Shown piece by piece: positions 1,161 through 61,864 of a stretch of 64,000 nt of DNA. The stretch is from the NCBI GenBank assembly GCA_019055375.1, contig JAHQIW010000121.1, positions 1-64,000 of the forward strand, written 5' to 3'. Below the pieces are notes generated by a model that saw only the letters and a program-made list of their open reading frames with translations, did not search any database and had not been told where the DNA came from. A program made the position numbers and the translations under genes. This DNA is from Parelaphostrongylus tenuis (lineage: Eukaryota > Nematoda > Chromadorea > Rhabditida > Metastrongylidae). Numbering within the stretch: position 1 is the first letter of the stretch; the number at the start of each line of letters is the position of its first letter.

Positions 1161-1166
1161 CATACC

Positions 1167-1428
1167 TTTTCTTTCGAGTGTTTTCTTGAGACTACGCTCA
1201 AATTTCATTTTGCTGATAATCATTTTTGAGCCATGCATGTGGTCTATTATAGGGTTGAGTCGTCGCCTTCTCTTTCTAGGGGTTGGATTCCCTCGAAAGG
1301 ACTGGCTAAAGACGGAAGGTACTGCCCGCCTGGCGGGACTATCAAGGCTGGAACACGTGTATGGGGCTCTACAAATTGCCTCATAACCGACCACATGCAT
1401 GGCTCAAAAATGATTATCAAACACAACG
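1167..1428. mobile_element. Degenerate relative of the hammerhead inverted-repeat element
   Basis: The left end (about 1170-1215) matches the terminal sequence of the elements at 33263 and 53221 (shared motif TTTCGAGTG, then GAGAC(T)ACGCTC). An inner inverted repeat of about 35 bp pairs 1217-1253 with 1391-1427, both containing the GCATGTGGTC / GACCACATGC motif. On the plus strand, 1318-1380 aligns with the hammerhead of the intact copies, but its core is mutated. The outer right terminal repeat is missing. It looks like an old, inactive copy. Confidence 0.6.
1318..1380 (+). ncRNA. Degenerate hammerhead ribozyme copy
   Basis: Aligned with the intact ribozyme at 37353-37415, this keeps the GGAACACGTGTAT segment around the cleavage site, but the catalytic CTGATGA box has become CTGGCGG (two invariant purines changed) and the GAAA box has become GGAA. 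It should be inactive. It is listed because it shows the ribozyme is an ancestral part of the element. Confidence 0.45.
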
Positions 1429-8548: not shown

Positions 8549-8562
8549 CTGCAAAGCAACAA

Positions 8563-8845
8563 TAAAAGATAATAAAGAAGATTTTGGCATTGATCAATCC
8601 CTGAGGGATACGCCGTGTATTCGTCTTTAATTTTTAGCTTTAATTGAGGTGGCTAGATTTTTATTTTGCCTTCAAAATGATTCGCGATGACCTACCGATG
8701 CATCGAGCCAGTGTTGGTTGTCCTCCCATGCGGCAAGCCTAGTATTAATTTACTGACCTCAAAGAGATGGAAGACTTGATGAGCATGAGCGCTGTGTTGG
8801 ACTATTGACCTTGTATGCGACGCGGAGTATTCTAACCATTCCACC
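8563..8845 (-). mobile_element. tRNA-derived SINE, family A, copy 3
   Basis: Minus-strand copy of the family at 3531-3836, starting (3' end) at the AT-rich tail near 8563 and running through the GATCAATCCCTGAGGGAT motif to a degraded tRNA-like head near 8790-8845. Confidence 0.7.
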
Positions 8846-13854: not shown

Positions 13855-14105
13855 CCTGTTTCACCTGTCTTCCCGTTGATCGTCTAATGACTCGAGCGAG
13901 AACCAGTAGCACTTCCCTTTTTCCAATCGCGTGCAGAAGTAGCCCAATGGATCCTCGCTTTAAGGATTGCTGAACATCATATCTTTTCTCTTAGCTTTTG
14001 GTGAAAAATCGGACAATTAGGTTGATGGTCTTCCTGTAGAGCGCTTGATTTCCCAGGAAACCCAGTCGGTAACGGCTATCGTCGATCGGTTGTCGTTAAA
14101 GAGCA
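13855..14105 (-). mobile_element. RTE LINE 3' fragment
   Basis: A 3'-terminal piece of the RTE family, minus strand. It repeats the same terminal segment (GACTCGAGCG and GTGAAAAATCGG motifs) seen immediately to its right at 14205-14400, so two RTE 3' ends lie head to tail here. Confidence 0.75.
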
Positions 14106-14109
14106 TCAC

Positions 14110-15310
14110 GTGTCCATCTCACCTTATTTGGGATATCCTGGCGTGTAGAACGACGGCTTTAACCTTCGATCGTTGGCGTAGGTATTACCTGCATTACCTG
14201 TCGTCCCGTTGATCGTCGAGTGACTCAAGCGGGCACCAACACCACTTCCATTTTTCCCTATCGCGTGCAGGAATAGCTCAGTGGGTCCATCCTGCTCTAT
14301 GGATTCGTTGAGCATCATACCTTTCTTCTAATCTTTTCGTAAAAAAATCGAACCATCGGATCGGTGGTCTTCCTGTAGAGCGCTTGATATCCCGAGGAAT
14401 CCAGTCGGCGTTGGTAAGAATCTTGAATCCTCTGTCTCATTTGCCAGATACGGGATACTTTCAGTATTGAACTTTCGGCTGCACGGCGAATAATACTTAA
14501 TGGTCTTTCACCGGCTTACGTAGTGACCAGGTTTTTAGAGTATACGTTGAGGCAGGGTTCAACCGTTAAGTCGAAGAGGTGGGCACAGGTCAAGTTCTCT
14601 CAGTTTCTTATATTAAGCTGGCAATCATGATTTTTCTTGCTGACACAGCGAACTTTAGTTCGACGCTTCACCTTTATCATAACGTGAAGTGGCTCTGATA
14701 ATGGCAATACTGCCGAAGCGCGCGCAAGCCCATCGAAATGAAAAGTAATATGTCAACCTTGGAAAGGCTTGATAAATTTTAGCAGGTCATATGTTTCTTT
14801 GTTTTCTTCGCCATATTCTCGATTCTTTTTAGCGCTTCTCTATCCGCTCGCTTCCTTCTGCTCAACTTTGGACGTTGCTCATACTGCCTTTCCAACATAG
14901 GTGAATGTAATCGGAGCACACGGGGATATTCATTCCATTGAGTGTAAATGAGGCATTAGAACAACCATCCTTGTAAACATCGTTTTCGTTAGATTTAGTC
15001 GGAAACCAATCGTTCCACAGGGGTTGCCGAATTCGGTCAACATTCGTTTTGCCTGGCTCATGCTTCTTGTTTGAGAACAATGTCATCATAGAACCAAAGA
15101 TAGTGTGATTGTGAACTGTCAGTTTCACTCCCATGAAGTCCTAATCGAGTATTCGCATGACGTTTTGGAGGATGGCATTATGGCATTAAATGATTTTGGC
15201 GAGATAGTATACCCTTGTTAAACCCTTCTTACTACATTGATCGTAGTATAGTCGTTGAATAATGATATTTTGATAGCGAAAACTTTATATAGCTCACGAA
15301 GAGTACCTGA
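14110..15310 (-). mobile_element. RTE LINE fragment, longer copy
   Basis: Minus-strand RTE copy covering the C-terminal domain and part of reverse transcriptase. Recognisable pieces are the SLNGMNIP-like segment at about 14925-14960 and the region encoding the N-terminal side of the RT palm to 15300. Frames are broken in many places. It is followed on the left by a second RTE 3' end (13855-14105). Confidence 0.72.
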
Positions 15311-15562: not shown

Positions 15563-15644
15563 TTACATATATAAATCTTTATTTAAGCGCTTTTTGCGGT
15601 GTTTCGATGCTACAAATCTACCCAGTGATGCAGAGCGATTTGCA

Positions 15645-15730
15645 GAACTTTCGCGTCAGGCTGGACTTGAACCCACATCTCACTTCAGCCGGGAGCGCGT
15701 GCTCTAGCCCATTGTAGGGCATAGGTTAGC
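15645..15730 (-). repeat. tRNA-derived SINE, family B, minus-strand copy
   Basis: Reverse complement of a tRNA-like head (B-box complement near 15665, A-box complement near 15700). It forms an inverted pair with the plus-strand copy at 15755-15905. Confidence 0.7.
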
Positions 15731-15754
15731 GTAGAAAAAGCGGTGGGTAAAATG

Positions 15755-15905
15755 AGCGCCAGTAGTGCAACGGGTTAGAACACGCGCTCTCGGATAGAGT
15801 GAGATGTGGGTTCGAGTCCCATCTGACGCAAAGGTTTTGCCATCACTCTGCATCACTGAGTATATTTGTAACATCGTAACACCGTAAAAACCGCTGAAAT
15901 AAAGG
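15755..15905 (+). mobile_element. tRNA-derived SINE, family B
   Basis: The tRNA-like head contains AGTGCAACGGGTTAGAACAC, the family-typical CGCTCTCGGATAG anticod­on-arm region, and a B box GGTTCGAGTCCC, followed by a short body. Related copies lie at 60389-60475, 60516-60625, 60800-60920 and 63365-63440. The inverted partner at 15645-15730 would allow a hairpin transcript. Confidence 0.72.
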
Positions 15906-15920
15906 TTTTTATTTGATCAT

Positions 15921-27319: not shown

Positions 27320-27475
27320 TATCATAGTTGCTCCGTTCGTTGAGTGACTCGATCGGACACCAATAAAACTTCCTTCTTCACTATCGCGCGTAAGTGTAAC
27401 CTAGTGAGACCTATTCGCTCAGGGAATCCGTTGTAGAACACATGTCTTTTCTGAGCTTTTGCTTGCAGCTGAAAG
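27320..27475 (-). mobile_element. RTE LINE 3' fragment
   Basis: A short minus-strand RTE 3' terminus with the GAGTGACTCGATCGGACACC motif, matching 14217-14320 and 5855-5990. Confidence 0.7.
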
Positions 27476-28006: not shown

Positions 28007-28506
28007 GGTCGCTCCATAAGTTCTGGTAGTAGGACAATAAGCACCCATTTTAGTAACCAGAAGTAATTGAAGTGAATGATTTTGGTATCGTTCAATTGCG
28101 CATTTTCTTGCAAACATTTTACAATTTTGCTTATTACTCACGCACGAAATGGCGCGTAGGGAAAAATGCTAGTGAATGAGCGTGCGAGATCAATGGAGCA
28201 TTCTGTGGACGACCCGAGCGCGACTGACTTTTCAGAGTGTTCTTTCCGGCTTTGAACTTAGCGAATCACTTCCTTGCCGCGCTTTCTGCAACCGTATCAT
28301 CGTCTCAGCTTCATTAATCTTGTACGTCGCTTCACTGACACTTTCCCCTACGCGCCATTCGTGCATGGGTAGGGAAGCGAATTTACTCCCAAGACAGCTC
28401 CTTCTTGAAGCAAGTATGGGCAAGTTGAATACCAAAATGCTCGCAAGGAAATCTCGTTTGTAAATTTAGTGTTTATTTCCCTCGTGCCAAAACTTATGGA
28501 TCGACC
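28007..28506. mobile_element. Mariner-derived foldback element (MITE)
   Basis: Terminal inverted repeats begin GGTCGCTCCATAAGTTCTGG on the left and, reverse-complemented, GGTCGATCCATAAGTTTTGG on the right, each next to a TA. Both arms carry the coding sequence for the transposase N-terminal motif (M)HEWRVG(E) in opposite orientation (about 28145-28185 plus; 28372-28330 minus), so the element is a palindrome built from an internally deleted mariner. The same motif occurs at 35158. Confidence 0.75.
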
Positions 28507-33255: not shown

Positions 33256-33262
33256 TATTATA

Positions 33263-33590
33263 CCTTTATTTCGAGTGTTTTGTTAAGACCACTCTCAAAT
33301 TTCAACAGATGCTTCCATTATTATTTGAGCCAACTTGTCATGTGGTCTGGTAAGGGCTCTTGTATAGCCCGATACACGTGTCTCGTCCTTACAGACTCGT
33401 TAGTAGGGCAGAACCCGTCGTCTCTCGATTTTTCTATAGTCAGTTCTCTCGAGAGCCCTACTCTCCCTACAGAGAGTTATCGAAGACAAAAGTTTTACAC
33501 TCTATGTCAAGTGAAATTTCCACCTCAAATAATAATGAAAGGATCTATTGAAATTCGAGCGTGGTCTTAACAAAACACTCGAAATAAAGG
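33263..33590. mobile_element. Hammerhead inverted-repeat element, complete short copy
   Basis: A 328-bp element with near-perfect terminal inverted repeats of about 65 bp: the left end starts CCTTTATTTCGAGTGTTTTG and the right end is its reverse complement, and the repeats run inward to ATTATTATTTGAG / CTCAAATAATAAT. It carries a mutated hammerhead on the minus strand (33354-33416), then a GAGAGTTATCGA segment and a CTATGTCAAGTGAAA segment that also occur in the 35.7-kb and 33.6-kb copies. Confidence 0.82.
33354..33416 (-). ncRNA. Hammerhead ribozyme copy with mutated core
   Basis: Same architecture as the intact copy at 35761-35823, but the catalytic box reads CTAACGA (the invariant G of CUGA changed) and the second box reads GAGA instead of GAAA. 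Stem II (GTC...GAC) and the palindromic CACGTG stem III remain. Cleavage is not expected. Confidence 0.7.
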
Positions 33591-33596
33591 TTTAAT

Positions 33597-33870
33597 ATGA
33601 TTAAAAATACCAGCCAAAGAGCAATCGAATGTATAACACTCTGTGTTAGGTAAAAATTTTACTTGACATGGAGTGTAAAACGTTCGTCTTCGATAATCCT
33701 CTGTAGGGAGAGTAGGGCTTCCGGGAGAACTGACTAATAATAAAACGATCGAAAGACGACAGGTTCTGCACGACTGACGAGTCTGTAAGGACGAAACACG
33801 TGCATCGGATTGTACAAGAGCCCTTACCAGACCACATGACAAGGCTCAAATAATAATAAAAGGATCTAAT
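33597..33870. mobile_element. Hammerhead element, second arm (truncated)
   Basis: Inverted relative to the left arm of the 35.7-kb element and aligning with it from the CTCAAATAATAATAAAAGGATC end inward to TAACACTCTGTGTTAGGTAA and a GAGCAATCGA-type inner segment. It follows the 33263-33590 element directly and lacks the outermost terminal repeat. Confidence 0.75.
33762..33822 (+). ncRNA. Hammerhead ribozyme copy, probably impaired
   Basis: CTGACGA at 33774-33780 (the variable seventh position is C, which is tolerated), stem II GTC/GAC, GAAA at 33793-33796. However, the base that should pair with the last A of GAAA is C rather than T (CACGTGCA at the cleavage site) and lower stem I has two mismatches. 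Activity is doubtful. Confidence 0.72.
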
Positions 33871-34380: not shown

Positions 34381-35136
34381 AGGCTCTGACGTACAACTTC
34401 AAAAAGGCTCTAAACAGTTGCACAGCAAAACTCCGTTTGAAAACCATTCACAAACTCCAACAAGGCAAAAAATGCGTGTTCATGGGGAAACGTAATCTTG
34501 TAAGTACAAAGCTCAACAAAACGGTCTTTCTACAAATCAAATGCAGTTCCTAAGCCATTTGAGGACCGCAGTTGATCATTTGCCTAGCGTGTTTTGCAAG
34601 CGCGGTGCAATTTCTGTTATTTAACTAGGGTTTTTTCTCCATTTTGATCAAAACCTTCAAGGTTTTTTTGTGTCGTTGTGATACTTCATAATTTTCTCTG
34701 TATGCTCATATGCTTGCTTATATATATCATACTTACGAAGAAAACTCTGAGGTGAAATACAATAATCTTTTTGATCTCACCACATTATATGCAGAAAGAT
34801 GTGAAAACATTTCTGTGAAAAATGAACACTGTTTTGAAATTGTCGAGATTTGAGCTACTCAATGACTTCCAAAAAATCCAACAGAAAGCCATCCACAGAC
34901 CTCAGTCAAGCAAACAAAGTAAGTTGAGTGTAAAGTATAATCCTATTTCTGTTGCTATAATGCCACATAAAAGACATTATGATAGGTTGTGTAAGCAGTT
35001 TGTACCGTTTTGGATTTTTAATGAAATTTTTGCAGTGAAATTTTACGATTTCAGTGTCTTTAAACGTGCAAATCTTTTTGCTAACGTTTTGGTATACGAG
35101 CTTGCCCATACATGCTTCAAGATAAAGCTGTTGTGG

Positions 35137-35335
35137 GAACGAATTCGCTTACTACTTATGCACGAATGGCGCGTAGGGGAAAATGCTAGTGAAGCCAGCA
35201 TGCAAGATCGATGGAGCTTGACGATGATACGGTTGCAGAAAGGATGGCTACGAACATCGATCCTTTACCCGAAAAGTGGCAGGAAGTCATCGAGGTCGAT
35301 GGAGAATGCTTTGATTATCACTTTCGCCTTCTTTT
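35137..35335 (+). pseudogene. Mariner transposase remnant, internally deleted
   Basis: The N-terminal motif RIRLLLMHEWRVGENASEAS (from about 35140) is followed almost at once, in another frame, by the family C-terminus IDPLPEKWQEVIEVDGECFD (about 35250-35330). The catalytic middle is missing. The N-terminal motif is the same as in the foldback element at 28 kb. Confidence 0.8.
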
Positions 35336-35707
35336 TGGCACTGACTACTGCCAAAATCATACCAAAAATTCAAAAGTGTACGAAGTTTTTACATAGCCTA
35401 ATAGAAGCCAAAGACACCAATAAAATTACTGAGACTAGACTCTCCAATATTACGAAATTACTGAAAGTCTTGGTTTGGATGCACCTCTTGTCATATTTGC
35501 TACGAATAAGGCACATCTGAAACTTATACACTTGTATCTTCCGAACAAATCGATCCAATTTGAAAGTTCCGGAAATCGACGAGGAGTAGTAAGCTCTATT
35601 ATTAACCAGTCACTGGATTATAGATGGTTGGCACATTTTTTCACAAGAAATGCTTCTATGACACACATTTAACATTTTCACGATGAAGTTGTTTTTCAGC
35701 AACAGAC

Positions 35708-35719
35708 GGTAATTCCTCC
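35708..35719 (+). repeat. Left target-site duplication, 12 bp
   Basis: GGTAATTCCTCC here is repeated exactly at 37505-37516, immediately outside the two ends of the hammerhead/RTE composite. The first two bases may belong to the element end. Confidence 0.7.
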
Positions 35720-35760
35720 TTTCATCATTATTTGAGCCAACATGTCATGTGGTCTGGTAA

Positions 35761-35823
35761 GGGCTCTTGTACAGCCCGAGACACGTGTTTCGTCCTTACA
35801 GACTCATCAGCCGGGCAGAACCC
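35761..35823 (-). ncRNA. Hammerhead ribozyme, type I, intact
   Basis: Read on the minus strand: distal stem I GGGTTCT/AGAGCCC, asymmetric internal loop (G against CTGTACA), lower stem I CCCGG/TCGGG, catalytic CTGATGA (35810-35804), stem II GTC/GAC with loop TGTAAG, GAAA (35791-35788), the palindrome CACGTG as a minimal stem III, and cleavage expected after the C of GTC between 35780 and 35779. It differs from the copy at 37353 by a single T for C, which keeps pairing as a wobble. The very short stem III matches hammerheads known to act as dimers in Penelope-like elements. Confidence 0.88.
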
Positions 35824-36117
35824 GTCGTCTGTCGATCTTTTTATAGTCAGTTTTCTCGGGAGTGTTACACTTTTTATAGAGAGTTATCGACGACGTACGC
35901 TTTGCACTCTATGTCAAGTGAAACATTCACCTAACACAGAGTGTTGTGCACTCGATTGCTCATTGGCTGTACTTTTATCATATTTATACCTTTATCTATT
36001 ACCTTATCTATTATCTTTATTACCATATCTATTATCTTTATCTATCTATTAAAAAAGCCTTTGATTCAGTGGAAACAAAAGGATTTAGTACCATGGACCA
36101 CATCCACACGATCACAA

Positions 36118-37013
36118 GACTCATTGAAGTTTCGCGAGAGTACACACAACCACTCTGTCTCACTTTTATCGATCTGAAAAAAGCCTTTGATTCAGTGGAA
36201 ACAGAAGCGGTTATAGAGGCTCTGGATAACCAGGGCGTCCCTACTCGGTACATAATGATCCTTCGTGAGCTTTATAAAGATTTCACGACCAGAATATCTC
36301 CATTCTACAACAATATCACCATTGACGTAAGAAGAGGGGTTCGACAAGGCGATACAATATCGCCAAAACTATTCACTGCCACCCTACAAAACGTCATGCG
36401 AACATTAGAATGGGACGAAATGGGAGTGAAAATTGACGGTCGACAATTAAACCATCTTCGCTTTGCTGACGATATCGTTCTCGTAACACCAAACATCAGC
36501 CAAGCGGAACGAATGTTGACTGATTTCGATAACGCCTGTGGAAAGATCGGTCTTCAACTGAATCTAGCGAAAACAATGTTCATGAGGAACGGATGGGTTT
36601 CTAATGCCCCATTCACGCTCAACGGAACGACAATTTCCGAATGCTCCAGTTACATCTATCTAGGTCGTGAAATCAACATGATGAACGACCTAGCCCCAGA
36701 GTTGAGCAGGAGGAAACGAGCGGCTTGGGGAACGTTTAAGAGCATCGAAGATGTAGTGAAGAGGACAAAGAACATCCGACTCCGTGCCCACCTTTTCGAC
36801 TCGACAATTATCCCTGCCCTAACGTATGCAGCAGAAACCTGGTCGCTACGTAAGCAGGATGAAAGATCACTTGCCGTTATCGAACGCGCAGTCGAAAGGT
36901 CGATGCTAGGAGTATCTCGTATTTCGCAAATGAACAAAGGATCCGAACTTCCGACCTACGTCAACGATCGAAAATCAGAGACGCCGTTCTACACGCCAGG
37001 ATATCGAAAATAA
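36118..37013 (+). pseudogene. RTE reverse transcriptase, 5'-truncated
   Basis: RNA-dependent DNA polymerase of a non-LTR retrotransposon. Palm motifs are visible in order: LTFIDLKKAFDSV (motif A), GVRQGDTISPKLF (motif B, with the RQGD signature), LRFADDIVL (motif C, catalytic FADD), then the thumb and linker (YIYLGREI, ALTYAAETW). The open frame extends upstream to 35946 through non-homologous element sequence, so that part is not native. A frameshift near 36930-37010 separates it from the C-terminal segment. No endonuclease domain. Codon choice is more GC-rich than the surroundings. Confidence 0.85.
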
Positions 37014-37282
37014 GGTGGGCCGGACACGTGATGCGCTTCAACGACAACCGATGGACGAGAGCCGTTACCGACTGGATTCCTCGGAACGTCAAGCGCTCTA
37101 AAGGAAGACCACTGACCCGTTGGTCCGATTTCTTCACGAAAGCGATGGAAGAAAGATATGATGCTCAGCGAATTCCTAGAGCAAGGAGGACCCACTGGGC
37201 TACTCTTGCACGCGATAGGGAAAAATGGAAGAGTTGCTGGTACCCGCTCGAGTCACTCGACGATCAACGGGACGACAGGTGA
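37014..37282 (+). pseudogene. RTE C-terminal segment, shifted frame
   Basis: Continuation of the RTE polyprotein after a frameshift: RWAGHVMRFNDNRWTRAV region, IPRNVKRSKGRP, TRWSDFFTKAM, ending with HWATLARDREKWK and the terminal LESLDDQRDDR. This C-terminal block is conserved in hookworm-type RTE elements. Confidence 0.85.
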
Positions 37283-37352
37283 TACAGGTGATCTATTACC
37301 TTTATAATTAAACCTCCCGAGAGAAGTGACTATAAACAGATCGACAGAAGAC

Positions 37353-37415
37353 GGGCTCTGCCCGGCTGATGAGTCTGTAAGGACGAAACACGTGTCTCGG
37401 GCTGTACAAGAGCCC
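37353..37415 (+). ncRNA. Hammerhead ribozyme, type I, intact
   Basis: Distal stem I GGGCTCT (37353-37359) pairs with AGAGCCC (37409-37415); lower stem I CCCGG (37361-37365) pairs with TCGGG (37397-37401); CTGATGA at 37366-37372; stem II GTC (37373-37375) / GAC (37382-37384); GAAA at 37385-37388; stem III palindrome CACGTG at 37389-37394; T37395 and C37396 form the cleavage triplet with expected cut between 37396 and 37397. All conserved core positions are present. The stem I internal loop could supply the tertiary contact known to speed such ribozymes. Confidence 0.9.
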
Positions 37416-37504
37416 TTACCAGACCACATGACATGTTGGCTCAAATAACGATGAAAAGATTTATTGAAATTTGAGCGTGGTCTAAACAAAGCACTCGAGA
37501 TAAA

Positions 37505-37516
37505 GGTAATTCCTCC
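37505..37516 (+). repeat. Right target-site duplication, 12 bp
   Basis: Exact repeat of 35708-35719 (GGTAATTCCTCC). Confidence 0.7.
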
Positions 37517-43600: not shown

Positions 43601-44144
43601 GCATGTACATCTGTGTGTACACCAGTCTAGGTTTAGATGCAATACATGCGTACAATACTGAACTACGTCGAACTGCTTCCTTAATGCTTTCTTTTGTCAT
43701 AAAGAAAAAAGTTCGGAGAATAATGGAAAATTTCTCATCCTTAATCACTCTCATCCTACTAGAAGATTGTGGAACTACGACAGCAATTTAAGCAAAAACT
43801 GATAACACTAAATTGATTCGTTAAAACGAGCATGTTTTGCTAACTGTAATAAAACACTATCATAAGGCTGCCTAGGAAACTGTTCCATATAGAACCCACA
43901 ACAAATTGTTGGTACAAAGGTAATTTTTTCAGTTTACATAAACTTTCTTGAAATAATTCTGTGAAACATCATAACTGTTTGTATTCAACTGACTCTCACT
44001 GTGACGGCGACATTAATTTTCTCTTTGCTCTTCAGAATTCCACACGGCGGGTAGGCAATCACTCGAGGAATACAGTTACCTGAAGAATGTAGCATGCCGT
44101 AGATTTTAGAGATATGACAGTATTTTGGAGTTCTAAATCAACAG

Positions 44145-44300
44145 ATTGGGCACCGCTGGCTCGCGGCGCTAGCCCGTCCATCGCGCACGCGCCGGCTCCT
44201 CGATAAGCCAGCCCGCAGGGACCAGTGTCTCGTGCTGTCCATCAGAAAGAAGGCTTCTGGTTCGATTCCCTGACAGGGCACTTCACTGTCATTTTTTTTT
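44145..44300 (+). mobile_element. tRNA-related SINE, family C, copy 1
   Basis: A GC-rich block with GGCGCTAGCCCGTCCATCGC at its start and a B-box-like GGTTCGATTCCCTGA near the end, followed by a T-rich run. It matches 44700-44880 in opposite orientation. Confidence 0.65.
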
Positions 44301-44699
44301 GCGTTTTTCTTTTTAATGCAGTATGCTCAAATCACTGACACACTATATCACACCATATCTCATATAGCAATACAGTAACACAAGCAATCAATCTCTTTAT
44401 TTGTTCATCACTATTTAATCAACAATTTGCAACTCATAACATCATAATCAACAAATAGATGTTTCATAATTATTGTATTTGTAATGTACCATTCTGCCCT
44501 CTGAATTGTATTGTTGTTGTTATTATTCTATGCAGATATGTTAAATGTATATATATTAGGTTATAAGTTTTGTTGAAGGTTGCAGGCTGTTGAATCAATG
44601 GTGATGAATTAATGATTCATAAACTGATCGTTTGTGCTACAATGTTACTACATGAGATATGGAGTGCCAGTAATTTGAGCATGTTGTACTGAAACGAAA

Positions 44700-44880
44700 A
44701 GATAATGCCAAGAAATTACAGCGAAGCGGCGTTTTAGGGAATCGAATCTGTAACCTTCCTCCGATGGGCGGCAGTAAGAGGCACTCGTCATTGCGGACTG
44801 TTCCCCGCCGAGCAGCCGTGTGCGCGACGGGATGGGGCTACCGCCACGTGTTTGCGGTCTCCAATGTGTTAACGGCGACT
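44700..44880 (-). mobile_element. tRNA-related SINE, family C, copy 2
   Basis: Reverse-complement relative of 44145-44300, sharing the GATTCGATTCCCTAAAACG and GTCGCGCAC segments. The two lie inverted about 400 bp apart. Confidence 0.65.
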
Positions 44881-46025: not shown

Positions 46026-49000
46026 CTAAAACGATATTACATTCTCAAAACTTGACTGCTCGAGTTCTTATCAAATTTCAAATGATCAGGACAGCTATCT
46101 ATTTAAGCATGTGTATATAGATTGATATCAAGTATCATGTGTCACGCATATGCATTTACTTTTCTTATTCGATCACTGCCAACTAGTGGAGCTTCCCTTT
46201 GATAGCACGTCCTAATTGAAATGATATTAGAATATCGCTCATTAAAGCGCTAAAAAAGCGCTCGGCGTTAATCAATCCCTGAGGGATGAGCCATGAATTC
46301 GTAATTAATTTTCAACTTCGCTTGAGGTGACTGTATGCATAGCTGGCCTTCACAGTGACTGGCGGTGGCCTCCTGCTGAACCGAGTCAGTGCTGCTTATC
46401 CTCCCAGACAAGTCTGAGACCAGTCAATACTAAATTACCGACTCCGGAGGAATGGATGACTTGGTGAGCCAAGAGCGCGGGATCATAGCTACGAGATTTT
46501 GTCATATGGCTTTACTGCACCTGACTGAACGAATGGTGGCGCTCGCTATATTCCGCCAGAGTATTCATCTTTCTGAACTCTCCAAAGTTTTATTGGTTTT
46601 CATGATTTTTTCACCTGATGACATGAGACTTTATTCTAATAGAATTAATCCCGTTCATTTTTAAAATAGTACTTTAGTTCTGATCGAAAGCGATAAAATC
46701 CGATAGCGGAAAGCTGCGAGTTCTAATAATGGAAAAACTGCCATAGGGGTTTTGATGAATAAAGCTTACAACGTTTCTAGACCTCTGAGGAATATTCCAT
46801 GCATTCAGTTAGCAGCATTAGAGAATCATAGGAGTGACTGGATGCATATTTAGTTTATGAAATGCTCTATCCGGTCCAACCGAGGGGTCATATAAATACT
46901 GTTATCTCGCGGATTCCTCTGGTGAAAATATGGTTGTGGTTCGTTACTCCAGTAATCTGCCTCAAACTGACGATCTACGTTTATGTTACGGTCCCTAAAA
47001 CCACTGCGTTACATTCGCCCTAGTTACGCACTGCGGAGTTATTTTTGTGGTCTAAAATCTTAGCATTCATCCACTGCTGGACAATGGGCAAGATTGTGTG
47101 GATGCTCTAAGAGATGAGACTGATCTTCTCACAATGAAGTGAAACAACGAAATAGTAGGGAGTGCTTGAAAAATCTTTAGTTGGTAGAAACTGCCTCCTA
47201 TTGAGAAAGAAAATTCTTAAAATTAACTATACAAGCTGAGTGTGTTATTTTCGCTTTAAAAAGTTGCGCAACAATGAAGACAGAGACAATTTGATTGAAG
47301 GGCACACATTTTTTCTGTAGTTCATTCAAATGTGTCGCAGCGTACATTTTTGTTAGGCATGCCGTTTTATTTATCAAATTAGGTTGATGCAAAAATATTG
47401 GTGGTTTTACGCCATGAACTTTGAAGTCGTCACAACTAAGCTCAATCACTTTGGCAGCATATTTCGGGCCTTTCATGAAACTCAAACACACCTTTGTCTT
47501 GCGAAATAGGAAGCGTTACATCCAACTGATATTTGTCAATTGCGTATTCATGTAGCGTGAGGATCACTGCCTCGGGATTCGATGAACTCTTGAAAGGCAT
47601 TTTCTACATACTGTTTATAGTGGAAGCGTTTTCGTGCAAAAAGTTCTCGGGCTTGAAGAAGCGGTACTCGGTGGAAACGAGTTCTGGCGGATATGGGATG
47701 AAGCAGAACTTTGTAGCCCAATTCCTTCAACTTTTTGAAGCGCTCGCTGTGCAGCGTGCGCCTGGCTGTCGGCTGGCGTTAATTAAACCACAGTACTTCA
47801 ACACAAATCTTTCTATCTTTTCAGTTTGCCTTCAAATGGCAAACGACCGTGGAATGGCCAACGCTGAACTCTTTTGCAACATATTGAGTAGTCTAAAAGG
47901 ATTATGACCGCTTTCAAATGGTCGTTGTCTGGCCGACCCTTGTTCTCCTCGTCTTCAAGACTCTAACTTCCTATACTAAACTTCTCCTATCACCGCTGCA
48001 CTGTTCGTTCGTTGAGAATTTTTGGGATAAATGTGATGTTGATCTTACGAGTTTCTCTACTGCTTTAGTACCCATTTTGAACTCATAATCGGGTACTGTT
48101 CCACTATGGAGGCGCCACTTCGACTTCTTGTAAAAACGTATTTCTTGGTCTTCTTTGATGATCGAATAGTTATTGGATAGCACGAAAGAATTTGAACGAT
48201 GTATTCCGTCTTCAAAAAGGCCTTGTCCTTGCGCTGAAAGAGCAAGAACAGTATTTTGTTTCTCACTGAAAGATTTCTCGCTGCCAAAAGTTTTCCTTAG
48301 GAGATTCATTAATCAAGAAATCAAATCTAAAAAATTCCAATGATCTATTTGATTTTTATGATGGGCCTGGTAATACGCTGTAGCAGCCAAAAGAACACTG
48401 GGTTTCGCAAAAAATGGATCACTTCAGCTGTCCTCTCTCCACTTTGATCCATTGCGAAAACCGCATTTTTTGGTCGTTTCTAATGCTTGAATAATCAATC
48501 AACAGCTTAATTCAAAAAACTTGAATGCTATATTTTATTTTCAAAAAGACCTTATTATTGCGCTGAAAGAGCATAAAAAAGTTGTTTTCTTTGAAAGATT
48601 TCTCGCTGACCAGAGCCTCTCTCTTATAGTTTTGAAAAGAAAACGATAGATCAGATCTCAGGAATTCAAATAATGATTTGGTTTTTTTTTTAACAAACTT
48701 CATAGTGCCTCATTAGAACCAAAAGAAAATTGGGTTTCGCACTCGATGCTTTATGTCCAGTTTTGCAAAGCCCAATCTTCTTTTCGTTGTTAGAGCGCCA
48801 TGCGAGGTTGATATTCAAAACCAAATAAATTATTGGAATTTTTAAGGTCTGTTCTATCGATTAATTACTGAAACACCAAAGGAGTTTCTTTGATCGGGTG
48901 AAATCTTTAAATGATGTACAAAAATTAATTTTCCCTCTTTCAGCGCAACAAAAAGGCCTTTTTGGAGAAAAAACTACATCTCTAAAATTCCCATTTTGTG

Positions 49001-52000
49001 AGCTATCGAATGGCTACTTAAACATCAAGAACGACCATAAAACACGTTTTTTACAAGGCATCAAAGTGAGCTGAGCATAAAAAAAGTGATCCAGTTTTGC
49101 GAAACCCAATCTTCTTTTGGCTGTTGCAACGTGATACGTGGTCCATTTCAGAAACAAAATAAATCGTTGAAATTTTCATGATTTGATCTGTCGACTAATT
49201 ATCAAAATTTTGAAGGCAAAGCTTTGATCAGCGAGAAATCTTTCAATGAAAAACAAAGTGTTATTTTTGCTCTCTCAGCGAATAAAGAAGATTTTTTTAA
49301 AGATTATTTAAACCTTTCAAATTGTTTTGATTTGTGCTATCGAACGATTATTTGAACATTGAAAAAGACTGTAAAATGCATTTTTTGCAAAGGGTCGCCT
49401 CCATAATGGAACAGTACCCATTATCGTTACACACAATTACTTTTGCGCCAACCAAAATCTTTTCAGTACTTCAAAATAGGTAATAACATAAACAGCAAGC
49501 AGAACGCCATCAGCATCAAAACATAGAGCGAGAACTGCGCATTTAAATAATTGTATAACATAGCCACATATATCCAAAATCATATTCCATTATTATAGCG
49601 CTCATTTTCACATTGCATAAACCACCATGATTTCAATATTTTAACGCGGTGTTGTCTACTTGCAAACTACTCAGTTCTTTCCTTTTCGCTTCAAAGCGAT
49701 TTGGATCCGCATTCCTTACAGTAGGCATATATGACGCTCATTACATTTTTGTGTGTATATGTGATTAAGAGTCGGAATGAGCTGCTCTTTTACTAAAGTT
49801 CTCAAGTGTCAGTGCATTGTGTCTAGCCTAAGTAAGAGATTCATGAAAGTTCCCTATCATTACTGTGTCCATTCATCTATGAAATTTGTTTTCCATTGAA
49901 AGCGTTTTGGTTTTTTTTTTATTAAGGAGTGCTCAAAAGAATACAGCTATAGTAATACTAAATAATAACAAATTATAATTCATAGACAGACGGATCTTTT
50001 CCTATATATTGTGAGTGAACGAATGACAAAAGCAAATTTGTCTTTGAGTATACTTTTGACTTCCCGTTGAGACCTTACCATAGTCCTTCTACATTCTAAT
50101 AAGGATTCTGTTTCACACGAAGTTGTTTTTTCCAATTCTGAGAGCTAATGTTAAATTTTTTTACAATAATTCAAAGATGTCGGCATACATTTGGTTCTTC
50201 TGAAGCGGGTTCTTTTGCTGATTTTGGTGCTCCTTGAACACTTCTCTTCTTCCTCCTTAATTCCAGCAGCATGACTTTATTGCACCATTTTTTATTGATC
50301 TCCATTTTACTTATATAGGAGCTTTTTTAGTAATTTGAATAATTCATAATAACTCTAATATCTCAATATTGCCTACGGTTTCTCAGGTCTAGGGGAGTGC
50401 TTCCCACAAAGAATATCCATTTCATCCTTGTTGAATATGCGATTTTGATCATTGACCTGAGAACATTTGACGTTTTCATTATCAGCACATCACCAATCTT
50501 CACTGGAATCAAAATAGAAGAATGAAGAGTGTTACCTTTCCATAAATAGCCTCTTTGATTCTATCAACCAGTCTGGAAGGTTCCAAGAAGAGCATAAGGG
50601 CTAATAAAAGTTTGAAATTGTAATAGAGTGGAATTTTTTCTAATTCCTTATCACCAAGGGTCAAAACGCCAAAAATACTCCTGCAAGAAATATGATTAAA
50701 GATCGTTATGCAAGGTAATTCTACCTAAAGCAATCAAATAGCTATTGAGATTTGTGATATGAGAGTTACGGTCAATCAGATTTGCGTTGCTACATAAATT
50801 TTTCCGTTGTCCAATATGTACATCATCCTCAGACAGTCCGTTGACTAGTATACCAGGAACGTCATCACCACAGAAAATTCAGGCCAATTCCTAGTCACAA
50901 GCCAACAAATTCTTTCCAATCGACGAAGATTGAGGACTGTTTTGGTGATGACTTGTCGACACGCTTGCACGGATAACTGAGTCAGCAGGAAAAGTTTGTT
51001 GAGCAGCAATTGATCTCTGAATAATGATAAATGGTGGTATATTCTGTGATATCAACTGATTGAATTGCACGATTCCGGCAGCTTGTAGGGATGATGGCTG
51101 TAGAGCAACTAAAAGAATGAGTGAGAGAAGTGGCGGACACGAAGGGGTTATGAAGGGGTCATTTATGTGTTTAGGAAATCAGTTAGGCATAAATTGAATG
51201 TAGATACAGTACATGGCAATATATAATCGCTTCATAGAACTTTTTCGGCAAATCATGACGCATTCATGAGAGCTGTGACGCATTTGACGAGATTGCTTGC
51301 TTATTCTCACGATAGCGAGCTTTTTGTGTTTAGCCAATATTAAAAAGTCATAGGAGTAGGTTGAATAGAACCTTTCAAACGATAGAGGAAGAATTCATCA
51401 TAATAACCAAGTTTGAAAAGTGGATATGTCCCGCACTGACTTCCAAGCACAGCTAGGGTTAAGATTTTCGCAACACTAAATCGTTGACTCGATAGCATGC
51501 TCACCCCTATCCAAGTCATCCGTGTCCTTCGCGCGAGCAAATTGGTACTAGGCCTACCTAGGAATAGGAAAGTAGCAATATTATGGGTTGGTAGACAGTC
51601 AATGTTTAGGCTAAATATGCACTGATAAAAGGCTGTGGTTACTAAATGGAAGGAAAACATGACTTACACCTAGAGGATTATCGAAGGCGCATATCATCCA
51701 TCACTTGTCTCAATGCCTTCGTTAGGAGTTTACGATTACAGCAGATTTTTGATGCACAAATTTTTATTGAACTATGGCGCTTGTCACTCTTCACCAGTTC
51801 ATCTCATTACTCTAATGTTATTCTAGACTACGTTTTGATAAATAACGAGTGATCAGGCTACGAAACTGAAAACACCAGATTTCTATTCATTTTCGGCAAT
51901 GAAAAATTGAGTGAGGACTGAAAAACGTTTTTTTTTGTATTAAATAAGATGTTTATAGGAAATTAGGATACTGGAATGTCGCAAATAAAACTGCAGTTAA

Positions 52001-55000
52001 TTTTTCTCACACTAGTTGCCGTAAATTTTAGAATCCGACGATGATGGCATGGTAGGTTAGTAGTGGATTCTTTGGAGATAGCCGAAATAAGGTGTTCTCA
52101 CGTGAACAGCGACCGAGTGTTGGAGAAAGGTCGAGCTGACACCTAATGTTCTAATTAACTGACTCACAAACCACCCTGCCAGTTTCGTCATCATAAAGTC
52201 GTGATATATGAGTGAGCAAACGGAATCCATCAAAAACATTCATTCTCGTTACTGACTGTGAAAGACTGAAAAGCATCCGCTTTTCATGGTCGGGTGCATC
52301 ATTCGCGTACGCATTTCGATGAAACGGATAAACTATTAAAACGTAGTCATTTCTAGAAGTTAAAGTTGTCTTCGAAAACTTCGTCTCCATCCCGAAGCAG
52401 ACAATGCCCAATAGCTCTCTAATTTAGAGATAGAATGAAAAAGCAATGGATATCGGTAATTTATTCTTTTTATTGTCAACTGTTTCCGTTAGACATACAG
52501 GCAAAATTCCAGATGAATATATCTAACGGAAACTGAGATCACGGTCCCGGTGAAAATCTGGCTACCACATGCACGTTCTTTGTTCCAACTGGCAATCAGA
52601 TTGATATGCTTTCTCATATTTTGATCTCCAAACTAACTTACCAATAGATAATCATGTCTTCTTTCGGCGGTGCCTCTTTCGGATAACCAAACGTGGTGAT
52701 CAACGGCACACTCAACATGATGGAGTTACACAGCGCTCTTGCTTGATCCGTTGCGGCACATATCACTAACACTGACCCGGCGATCGCCTTTGCCAACTGA
52801 AACGATTCATTTGGTTTGTGTGATCACTGACGGTAGCAAAGGTGTGGTTTTGATAGAGTTCAACTCAAGCTCAACTTCAAGGACTTCCTGTGAAATTTTA
52901 TTTCGTTTTCATCTTCTTTTCAATTTGGGTTAATGAAGCGTATCCAATTCCGTTGGCATATGTGTTTCCTCTCATAAATGAGAGGCAAGCTTTATTTGAA
53001 AAGGTGTTTTCATTGAGACTAGGCTTGCCTTCCATTGGATTTGTGGAGTTTTAATTTTTTTGTCTCCTATTATTTTTTATTTTATAATGCTACTTCAAAA
53101 GTCTCACTTGTCCATATTCGCCTTAACCTTTCTGTTAGTTATTTTATATCTCATTACTGGTCATCTCTCCTTATCACTCTATTGATCTTCTCCGTTAAGA
53201 AACAAAACTCTCTCATATTCCTTCATTTCGAGTGTTTCCTTGAGACTACGCTCGATTTCAATGGATCTCTTCATTATTATTTGAGCCAACATGTCATGTG
53301 GTCTGGTAAAGGCTCTTGTACAGCCCGATACATGTGTTTCGACCTTACAGTCTCGTCAGTCGGGCAGAACCTCTTATTTTCATTTGCATTTCCCTTGTGT
53401 CCTCCTAATACTCACGCTTTATCTTTATTTCAGTCAAAAGACATGTCTGCCTCATCGTTTGATTTATTATTCCTTCAGCACTCACAGTCTCCCATGCGCC
53501 CTATTATTTGAATTCAGCCCTATTAGATTCTTCAGCAACCGTTTTCCAGACTAATTTCTGTCTTGCTGCATTAATTCTAACTTGCAAGATAGCCGCTATT
53601 TTTTCTGCAGCAAGAGGAACTGAGTTTCAATTAATGTTTGTGCTCTATTTTCTTACTAAATATCTCCTCATTGCAAACTTTTCTGGTCCAGTGGAAAAGC
53701 CCTTTTTCGTAATATTTACATTAAGTGAAAAACATTGATCAATTTGCAAGTAGATTCTTCCGCATCGAAGATTGTCTTTTTTTCGGAATATCGGTCCAAT
53801 CTCACACGTTTAAGGCGATTCCTCAACCACGTAATTACCTCCGATTTAATGGAATTAGTATCCGTTGCAATCCTTTGGTGAATACGGTTGAATTTAATGC
53901 ATGTTCATAGCTCAAACCTCACAGAGCGCCAATGTTGAGGTTGTTGGCGTGGCTCTTATAAAACGTCTTCACATTGTGCGTGCGTTATCTATCTTACTAT
54001 TGTGGCTGCTAATTATGTAACATGAACGGACTCATAAATGGCATAAATCCTTGTATTCGACCTAGGTAAGACAGTATTCAGTCAAATGGATAGAGTTACG
54101 TTTGTGATACCTATGATCGTTATCTCGATGCTTCACTTCTGCTCTAAAGTTCCATTGAATAGATCATTGTCTCTTGACAAGTAAACATGAATTGTCAACG
54201 GTGAAATTTATTGAATGCAATAAAGTAACATCTTGGCTGATGTTTTAGGGGCCTGAGGTGTACATGAGTCAGCGATTGGCAATTGGGTCCAGATTTGAAT
54301 AAAGTAGTCGAGTGGCGGCACAGGCTTCGTATTCTAAGCTACCGGAAGTCATTCTACACGCTATAACGCTCACACTCACTTCTACTATACTACGGATGTA
54401 GTCCATTGCACATTGCACACTAAAGGCTGACCAAAACAAATGCTTCTATTACATCTTTCAGCTATGACTGAATGGCTAGCATATTGGGAGCAGATCAAAT
54501 CCGGCGTAGCAGTGACGATAAAAATTAATAGTCGCGTTCATGTTCATACATGAGCTCGGTTGCGTTGCCGGTTTCGTCATAAATCACCAAAAATTCCCGA
54601 CAACGTTGTTTACACTAAACCGAATTCCCTCCAACATCAAATGCAGGATAAGCAGAGAGCACGAATTTTTTGTGAAAGCATCTATAGAGGATATTGTATG
54701 TGAATATAAGATTAATTCCCTTTTCTTATAGATATGTCGCATGCAGACGTCTTCTAAACTCTACTTTATTCCAGTAGTGATTTATGCCCTGTGAGAATTC
54801 CGTCTCCTCTTTGAAACGGTGTTTTTTCGCCACGCCCCTTTCAGTTGATATGGGTTCTACTAACACTTTCCTAGGTTTCCCATGGCCTGTTAGGGATCGA
54901 TCTTATACGAGGAAAGAATAAAAATATTTGAGCTAACAAGCAGGCAGAAAGGAGGATCAGTTCATAATCATCTTCCTGTTTGCTCTTCCAAGCTCTAAAA

Positions 55001-60245: not shown

Positions 60246-60388
60246 GTGTGAGAGAGTGAAAACACTACACAGAACGCTCACTTTTCCTTCGATTGTATCT
60301 TTCTGACATCTCGAAACAGATTCTGTAAGAAGTAACCGGAGTAAGCAATATTATTCCTAAGAGAATTGAGAGGTGAGCAAGAACACGA

Positions 60389-60475
60389 CCTCAGGAGCGA
60401 ATCGAACCCTTATTTCATCCTATCCGGGGACGCGTGCTCAACCACTGCACCACCGAGGCACATTTGCGCCACCAC
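60389..60475 (-). repeat. tRNA-derived SINE, family B, minus-strand copy
   Basis: Reverse complement of the family head (B box complement near 60400, GGACGCGTGCTC, A-box complement CACTGCACCACCGAGGCACA). It is head-to-head with the next copy. Confidence 0.75.
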
Positions 60476-60515
60476 TCATAACTAACATAGAATGTTGAAG
60501 AATGAGTGATGGTGC

Positions 60516-60630
60516 AGATGTGCCTCAGTAGTGTAGTGGCAGAGCACGCGTCCTCGGATAGGATGAAACACGGGTTCGAATCCCGCCGCCATGGTTTTAC
60601 TCACCACCCAATTCTCCTAGGATATATGAA
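60516..60630 (+). mobile_element. tRNA-derived SINE, family B
   Basis: GTAGTGTAGTGGCAGAGCAC (A box), GTCCTCGGATAGG, GGTTCGAATCCC (B box), then a short body CACCCAATTCTCCTAGGATA. The pair with 60389-60475 would form a hairpin of about 80 bp. Confidence 0.78.
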
Positions 60631-60799
60631 TAATTATAACACTGCGAAGAAAACAGTAAAATTACTAGGCTTTTCGAATACTAGCTATCACAGTAGCTCT
60701 CAGCTCAACTGGCTTTATAAAGCGAATTCGCATATCCGACCAAGCCTGTTAAATGTTGGTGGCTGATAGCTAACATAGAGATGTTGAATACTGAGTGGT

Positions 60800-60925
60800 G
60801 GTGCAAATGTGTCTCGGTGGTGCAGTGGTATAGCACGCGTCCTCGGATAGGGTGAAACGCGGGTTCAATACCTGACAGAGGCCGTGTTTTTGCTAACCAC
60901 TAAATTCTCTTAAGAATATGTGAAT
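60800..60925 (+). mobile_element. tRNA-derived SINE, family B
   Basis: A second plus-strand copy, GGTGGTGCAGTGGTATAGCA and GTCCTCGGATAGGG conserved, the B box degraded to GGTTCAATACC, and the same body (ACCACTAAATTCTCTTAAGA). Confidence 0.75.
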
Positions 60926-61126
60926 AATCATGAATCACGAGAAATGCACTCAAATACTCGAAATTTCGAATATAAGCGGTATTATTCCGTGCATTATGAG
61001 CGGTCGGTGCTAGGCTTGGAAGTGTTTGAAAATGTCTCTATCGAAAGAAGTGGAATTTGTTTCGCTCATATTCAGGATATTAATAAAAACCATAGTAATA
61101 ATAATATAAGGTTTTCTTACAAGTTT

Positions 61127-61795
61127 TCGTACTAGGGCAATAAACACCAAATTTATTAACCAGGAGTAATTGAGATCGCTCAACAGCACTATTCAAAGCA
61201 TGAACCATCGGCCTGAATACATTTCTGCCATCGTTTGGTACCAATTTTGCCCATACTTGCCGTATCATGGCCTCTCAGCGAGGCCTTCATCGCAATTTGC
61301 TGCTTTACGAGTACGCATTGAGACGCAATGCACAGACTGCCTTCAAAAACAACCGTGCAAAAGCTAAAGGATTTGTGTCCAGACGAACAGCTGCAATCGG
61401 ACGCTGTAATGTCAAATTTGCCTTAATCTCACCTGCTCCGAGACAACACAAGGCTGCATGTCGCCAATTTGACGAACAGGAAGTTGACCGAACTGGAGTG
61501 GGAGTTACTGGATTATCCACCGTACAGTCCTGATTTGTCGCCGTCTATCTATCACCTCTTCCGGTCGCTGGAGTACTTCCCATGCAAGAAGAAGTTCCGA
61601 AGCATCAATTATTTGCGCTGGGAATTGGCACTTTCTTAGAATCCAAGGATGACGAGTTCTATGAGCGCGGTATTGATTTGCTGCTTAAGAGTTGACAGAA
61701 ATGTGTTTGGGATGACGGCGCATACTTTGAATAGTGCTGTTATGCAATTTAATCACTTTTGCTTGATAAATTTGGTGTTTATTACTCCAATGTTG
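61127..61795 (+). mobile_element. Mariner element, internally deleted, with terminal repeats
   Basis: Terminal inverted repeats of about 60 bp: the left contains CAATAAACACCAAATTTATT and AACAGCACTATTCAAAGCAT, the right is the reverse complement (TTTGAATAGTGCTGTTATGC and AAATTTGGTGTTTATTACTC). Between them lies a transposase with its N-terminal motif and C-terminal third fused. Confidence 0.78.
61267..61730 (+). pseudogene. Mariner transposase remnant
   Basis: The N-terminal motif LLLYEYALRRNAQTA (about 61300) precedes, after a deletion and frameshifts, LRDNTRLHVANLTNRKLTEL, the family signature YPPYSPDLSPS(I)YHLFRSL (about 61510-61570), FPCKKKFR, and DDEFYERGIDLLLK with a CVWDDGAYFE-type end (to about 61728). 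The first two catalytic aspartates are lost; not functional. Confidence 0.85.
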
Positions 61796-61864
61796 AGATT
61801 TGTGAGAACACCTAATAATAGCGTTAATTATAGTAATAATAACAGCAATAATTCTAACATTTAA

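What the first reader, a model, noticed from the sequence alone, without database searches (positions are those of the whole stretch)
35708..37516. RTE reverse transcriptase fragment framed by two intact, outward-pointing hammerhead ribozymes, with a 12-bp duplication around the whole
Seen: the two ribozymes (35761-35823 minus, 37353-37415 plus) differ by one pairing-neutral base, their arms are inverted copies of about 135 bp, an RTE RT domain lies between, and GGTAATTCCTCC flanks the composite on both sides. Known: hammerheads with tiny palindromic stem III accompany Penelope-like elements and retrozymes and cleave as dimers. Inference: the composite moved as one unit by target-primed reverse transcription, so a hammerhead element and an RTE LINE may be mechanistically coupled here. 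Transcripts from either strand carry one active ribozyme at the 3' side and its antisense at the 5' side, so the ribozyme can be masked by the arm-to-arm hairpin.
Basis: partly seen in the sequence, partly recalled or inferred. Interest (0 to 1): 0.88.

Follow-up and report, generated by a model that had tools for sequence, protein, structure and literature searches.

The report
Hammerhead retroelement interrupted by an RTE
In what is probably a deer-parasite nematode genome, a short mobile element carrying two mirror-image hammerhead ribozymes was later broken into by an unrelated retrotransposon, so the striking combination is most likely one jumping gene landing inside another.

Summary
The anatomy is real. 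Two hammerhead type I cores face outward (35774-35816 minus, 37360-37402 plus) in 95%-identical inverted arms. They frame a 5'-truncated RT-bearing LINE (36051-37292), with GGTAATTCCTCC on both outer sides. The organism is probably the nematode Parelaphostrongylus tenuis (RT 98% identical).

The inference of joint movement is not supported. (1) Three other copies of the hammerhead element were found in the window; two are also inverted pairs, and none contains the LINE. (2) The LINE has its own 12-bp flanking repeat, ATCTATTACCTT. It belongs to a degenerate array carrying the hammerhead element's own 3'-terminal motif, so both ends of the LINE abut hammerhead-element sequence. (3) The 3' ends differ: CACTCGAAATAAAGGTA against tandem ACAGGTGAT. 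(4) The LINE may be younger than the divergence of the arms, a weak argument.

Best reading: a retrozyme-like, non-autonomous hammerhead element inserted as a head-to-head inverted pair, later interrupted by a truncated RTE. What remains interesting is the element itself: a hammerhead element in a strongylid nematode, recurrent inverted pairs, and an 11-nt 3' end shared with a tRNA-derived palindrome. The genome-wide search did not complete.

The parts
35708..35719 (+). left copy of outer 12-bp repeat GGTAATTCCTCC (target-site duplication, 8-12 bp)
   Evidence: control 2 of 2000
35717..35986 (-). left, inverted hammerhead unit without the 3' tail; its inner end carries the junction to the end of a preceding unit (ATAAAGGTA)
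35774..35816 (-). hammerhead type I ribozyme core, intact by sequence
   Evidence: RF00163 34.9 bits
35987..36050 (-). degenerate ~12-bp array (ATAAAGGTAATAG-like on minus strand) at the head of the left unit; TRF gives 35987-36045, 5.0 copies, 76% matches
35994..36005 (+). left copy of ATCTATTACCTT, flanking repeat of the RTE
36051..37292 (+). 5'-truncated RTE-like LINE: 31-bp repeated piece at its 5' end, RT domain, frameshift near 36930, native C-terminus and stop at 37282, 9-bp tandem tail (ACAGGTGAT)x2
37291..37302 (+). right copy of ATCTATTACCTT; an exact ATAAAGGTAATAG unit at 37293-37305 on minus strand
37309..37507 (+). right, sense hammerhead unit, 5'-truncated, with 3' tail ending CACTCGAGATAAAGGTA
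37360..37402 (+). hammerhead type I ribozyme core, intact by sequence; predicted cut after C37396
   Evidence: fold
37505..37516 (+). right copy of outer 12-bp repeat
33261..33870 (-). copy B: inverted pair of hammerhead units without RTE; contains a tail-to-head tandem junction at 33591/33592; cores broken (by reading)
53220..53371 (-). copy C: single 5'-truncated hammerhead unit, core conserved by reading, 26.8 bits in Rfam (below gathering)
1163..1419 (-). copy D: divergent inverted pair, hammerhead core lost (by reading)

Best explanation
A non-autonomous, retrozyme-like hammerhead retroelement (unit about 320 bp by reading copy B, 3' end AATAAAGGTA) inserted by target-primed reverse transcription as a head-to-head inverted pair with a target-site duplication of 8 to 12 bp. 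Later a 5'-truncated RTE LINE inserted, with its own 12-bp duplication, into the AT-rich repeat array at the centre of that pair. The inverted pair most likely arose by twin priming on a dimeric RNA: one primer at the RNA's 3' end, the second at the A-rich linker upstream of the tail. Shown: the anatomy, the RTE-free relatives, both flanking repeats. Inferred: order of events, twin priming, retrotransposition of the hammerhead unit, ribozyme activity.
For: Inverted hammerhead pairs without RTE occur at 33261-33870 and 1163-1419, and a single unit at 53220-53371. By eye in the alignment, the inverted, tail-less unit ends within about 15 bases of the same unit position in 3 of 3 pairs. RTE is flanked by ATCTATTACCTT on both sides (4 of 2000 controls reach the score), and these flanks belong to an array whose unit contains the hammerhead element's end ATAAAGGTA. 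RTE ends in (ACAGGTGAT)x2, unlike the hammerhead tail. RT differs from P0002 at 5 of 395 residues plus one frameshift, while the arms differ at 7 of 146 positions; if the arms were identical at insertion, 21 amino-acid changes would be expected in an RTE of the same age, P(5 or fewer) 2.6e-5. The two A arms share 5 bases seen in none of B_m, B_p, C, so they come from one source.
Against: No empty site was seen and no other genome copy could be examined (genome search did not complete). The array makes the RTE flanking repeat easier to find by chance than the control implies, and 45 bp of array lie between its left 12-mer and the RTE. The age argument fails if the arms already differed at insertion: of the 7 differences, 5 are private to the right arm, 1 to the left and 1 is ambiguous, and with the left arm's rate alone P is 0.43. 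Copy B's flanking repeat is weak (75 of 2000 controls), C 55 of 2000, D 1061 of 2000. B's two arms are no closer to each other (79%) than to A's left arm (81%), so a single source is not shown for B. P0121 shows another RTE 3' end near a hammerhead arm.
Confidence: 0.82

Rival explanations
1. The composite is one mobile unit: an RTE 3' fragment captured between hammerhead arms by template switching and inserted in a single event, perhaps now a family of its own.
For: One perfect 12-bp repeat encloses the whole. P0121 combines an RTE 3' end and a hammerhead arm. P0001 and P0002 (the latter with 47 clustered members) both start at the same methionine as this truncated copy.
Against: 0 of 3 other hammerhead copies has RTE and 0 of 3 other RTE places has hammerheads. 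The RTE is flanked by its own repeat lying in hammerhead-element sequence on both sides. A shared first methionine can be explained by gene prediction from the first ATG of a truncated frame. Tails differ.
Confidence: 0.1
2. Two independent hammerhead insertions in opposite orientation happen to flank an RTE, with no dimeric event.
For: Hammerhead copies are dense here (4 places in 64 kb); inverted repeats of other kinds are common in the window. B's arms are no closer to each other than to A's left arm.
Against: Both A arms share 5 bases absent from B_m, B_p and C, 3 of 4 copies are inverted pairs with about the same outer boundary, and one 12-bp repeat spans the pair.
Confidence: 0.06
3. The hammerhead pair is a foldback DNA element with terminal inverted repeats moved by a transposase.
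For: Long inverted arms with a short flanking repeat; inverted pairs recur.
Against: Asymmetric ends: one outer arm carries the 45-bp tail, the other does not. A single 5'-truncated copy exists with complete 3' tail (C), as reverse transcription gives. Outer repeats differ in sequence and length between A and B (B's being weak).
Confidence: 0.07

Closest known systems
Animal (non-LTR) retrozymes, Cervera and de la Pena 2020, PMC7229834 (passages and the Discussion seen)
   Same: Type I hammerhead; unit near 300 bp; low G+C (0.40 and 0.44 for two unit stretches); tail-to-head tandem junction; non-coding; partner LINE or PLE not established.
   Different: Mostly inverted head-to-head pairs here, not tandem arrays; 11-nt 3' end shared with a tRNA-derived repeat; nematode host ('nematod' does not occur in that paper's main text). 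Circular RNA not tested.
Penelope-like element hammerheads (minimal type I, dimer-acting; statement seen in passages of PMC7761336; the primary papers asked for are not held, recalled)
   Same: Stem III is a loop-less palindrome (ACACGTGT), so the ribozyme should act as a dimer.
   Different: No Penelope RT seen beside the composite; the RT inside it is of LINE type. The rest of the window was not scanned with profiles.
RTE-type LINEs of strongylid nematodes (clade name recalled)
   Same: RT 96-98% identical to 4 proteins named from P. tenuis and 58-86% to the other 116 of the 120 listed hits, of 1735 found; short tandem 3' tail.
   Different: Truncated, frameshifted, no endonuclease; no hammerhead of its own.

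Membership tests
Animal non-LTR retrozyme | type I hammerhead motif | tested here: met
   RF00163 above gathering score in both arms, weaker in C
Animal non-LTR retrozyme | units of about 300 bp in tandem, from dimers up | tested here: inconclusive
   Tail-to-head junctions in A and B, but no complete direct dimer found in the window; pairs are inverted
Animal non-LTR retrozyme | G+C below 45% | tested here: met
   0.403 and 0.437 for two unit stretches
Animal non-LTR retrozyme | self-cleaved and circular RNA in tissue | not testable with these tools
   no RNA data at hand
Penelope-like element | Penelope-type RT with or without GIY-YIG | tested here: inconclusive
   The RT inside A is RVT_1 with LINE relatives; only two window frames were scanned with Pfam
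RTE LINE | RT domain related to endonuclease-RT LINE proteins of strongylids | tested here: met
   (relative P0004 carries PF03372 and PF00078); the clade itself was not tested by a tree
RTE LINE | short tandemly repeated 3' end | tested here: met
   (ACAGGTGAT)x2 at 37275-37292; that this is typical of RTE is recalled
Foldback DNA transposon | symmetric terminal inverted repeats reaching the target-site duplication at both ends | tested here: not met
   only the right arm has the 45-bp tail

The most novel reading that the evidence does not exclude
Head-to-head inversion is a regular outcome of how this hammerhead element moves: dimeric hammerhead RNA is reverse-transcribed with a second priming event at a fixed A-rich linker. 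The hammerhead element and a tRNA-derived palindromic repeat share one unseen LINE partner that recognises a GAAATAAAGGT 3' end. Inverted copies would then be self-silencing by-products, since each masks its own ribozyme.
Probability: 0.25. Interest if true: 0.6.

Novelty: new member of a known kind. Interest (0 to 1): 0.33.

Why it matters
The enzyme that moves animal hammerhead elements is not established (the Discussion of PMC7229834, favours Penelope-like elements). A nematode element with a defined 3' end shared with a tRNA-derived repeat would let one look for the partner LINE by its tail. The supposed RTE-hammerhead coupling, which would have named RTE as that partner, is not supported here.

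Tried and rejected
Composite as one unit: rejected on the evidence. RTE as the mobiliser through a shared 3' end: rejected, since the RTE tails read in the window (37275-37292; near 14184 and 13866 minus) do not carry the hammerhead tail. Truncated RTE as a family of hammerhead-flanked copies because P0001 and P0002 start at the same methionine: not accepted; gene prediction can explain it, and by eye P0001 does not read into a hammerhead after its RTE end (it may be spliced; no comparison was run). More hammerhead-bearing proteins: one search gave 1 (P0121), none. The hammerhead pattern in viral contigs and genome contigs and the RTE protein in viral contigs: nothing found; these collections are not of animal genomes. 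Literature: of ten searches, five joined hammerhead or retrozyme with nematode terms. By title and start of abstract none of the papers they listed (7, 3, 3, 3 and 1, with overlap) is about a hammerhead element in nematodes; apart from passages of PMC8490949 their texts were not read, and one search listed only 3 of 2,756 papers and tells little. Rfam at E up to 5 added copy C and no further hammerhead.

Full report
The described anatomy is present. Rfam's type I hammerhead model matches at 35774-35816 on the minus strand and 37360-37402 on the plus strand, 34.9 bits each. The arms 35717-35867 and 37309-37459 are 94% complementary over 151 nt. GGTAATTCCTCC lies on both outer sides; 2 of 2000 random stretches of the window match the right flank as well. 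An RT domain (PF00078, 88.4 bits) lies between. In the predicted fold of the right ribozyme the centroid shows stem I with an internal loop and stem II; the fold is not much stabler than shuffles (z -1.13, 28 of 200 shuffles fold at least as well), so the case for the ribozyme rests on the conserved core. Stem III is the loop-less palindrome ACACGTGT, which can close fully only between two motifs. In a predicted fold of the whole plus-strand composite, 62 of 63 ribozyme bases pair with the left arm, so the masking idea holds on paper.

Source. The RT frame is 98% identical over 78% of the query to two proteins named from Parelaphostrongylus tenuis (P0001, P0002); of 1735 hits 120 were listed, and the named ones among them bear names of nematodes that I know as strongylids. 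I take the window to be P. tenuis or a very near relative. The published assembly is 491 Mb and reports 31,166 LINEs (PMC10940269, start of abstract, passages).

Relatives in the window. BLAST of the arms against the window (E up to 1e-3) finds three more places. B (33261-33870) is an inverted pair and includes a tail-to-head junction...AAATAAAGGT joined to TTTAATATGATT..., the mark of a tandem unit. D (1163-1419) is a divergent inverted pair with a lost core. C (53220-53371) is a single 5'-truncated unit whose core reads as conserved (26.8 bits, below gathering). None of the 3 contains RTE. None of the 3 other RTE places found with the composite as query (13855-15301, 5835-6668, 27337-27433) is next to a hammerhead arm. 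In the 3 inverted pairs the outer sense unit has the 3' tail, and the inverted unit lacks it and stops, by eye, within about 15 bases of the same unit position.

Order of events. The RTE has its native end (stop at 37282; ACAGGTGAT twice, 37275-37292) and abuts ATCTATTACCTT. The same 12-mer stands at 35994-36005; 4 of 2000 control stretches match as well. On the minus strand these flanks read ATAAAGGTAATAG, once exactly on the right (37293-37305) and in a degenerate array of about five units on the left. ATAAAGGTA is the 3' end of the composite's own hammerhead tail, and the tails of B read ATAAAGG too, so the RTE sits inside hammerhead-element sequence. Motifs like it with up to 3 mismatches are not rare in this AT-rich window (26 on plus, 20 on minus). 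The RTE's 5' end is rearranged: 36051-36081 repeats 36177-36207, as from a template jump. Its protein differs from P0002 at 4 of 280 and 1 of 115 residues, plus a frameshift, while the arms differ at 7 of 146 positions. If the arms were identical at insertion, an RTE of equal age should show about 21 changes (P 2.6e-5 for 5 or fewer). But 5 of the 7 differences are private to the right arm, 1 to the left and 1 is ambiguous, and with the left arm's rate alone P is 0.43. The age argument is therefore a hint only.

How the hammerhead pair may have formed. Both A arms share 5 bases absent from B_m, B_p and C, so they stem from one source. B's arms are 79% alike, no closer to each other than to A's left arm (81%), so for B this is not shown. 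The A and B pairs can be read as a dimeric RNA primed at its 3' end and again at the A-rich linker GATGAAAGGATC. In A the left flank ends TCC, which would pair with GGA there. This is twin priming by inference. The flanking repeats of B and C are weak (75 and 55 of 2000 controls) and D has none (1061 of 2000).

Partner. Exact GAAATAAAGGT occurs three times in the window against 0.12 expected in a simulation: twice at hammerhead tails (both in B) and once at the end of a palindromic tRNA-derived repeat, 15566-15915. With one mismatch allowed there are 6 against 2.28 expected, reached by 3 of 100 shuffles, and two of the 6 are not at such ends. The motif was chosen after seeing it. It suggests a common LINE partner that is not this RTE.

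Against my reading. One P. tenuis predicted protein, P0121, has a frame from an RTE 3' end (70% over 33 residues) followed by an antisense hammerhead frame (81% over 43 residues). The arrangement differs from the composite and may span an intron, but it is a second neighbourhood of the two, and it was the only hammerhead-bearing protein found in two searches. By my own estimate, hammerhead elements fill about 2-3% of this window, so a nest by chance among four RTE places is not remarkable (about one window in ten). The own-genome search, which would settle copy numbers and junctions, did not complete in 15 tries.

Verdict. A real and tidy observation, most likely a nested insertion. The hammerhead element is a new member, in a nematode, of a known kind (retrozyme-like), with an unusual share of inverted pairs.

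Noticed in passing
15566-15915: Palindrome of about 350 bp with a tRNA-like core (41.3 bits, 15756-15830) whose end reads GAAATAAAGGT, the same 11 nt as at the hammerhead tails of copy B; perhaps a tRNA-derived SINE in head-to-head form moved by the same partner.
   Followed up: partly
60355-60918: tRNA-like repeats in inverted and direct copies (60387-60459 minus at gathering score; 60528-60587 and 60811-60883 plus below it); the mir-885 match there looks like a by-product of the inverted tRNA pair.
   Followed up: partly
48085-49424, 44140-44870, 7111-8827, 61102-61820: Other inverted repeats, alignments of 129-1383 bp at 67-74% identity; inverted pairs are common in this window.
   Followed up: no
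33591-33592: Tail-to-head junction of two hammerhead units in copy B, evidence of a tandem (dimeric) template.
   Followed up: yes
36051-36081: 31-bp piece at the RTE's 5' end repeats 36177-36207 (97%), joined to the frame at GFSTMDH: sign of a template jump at the end of reverse transcription.
   Followed up: partly
34500-35707 against 28126-28446: Left flank of the composite holds another dispersed repeat (81-84% identity).
   Followed up: no
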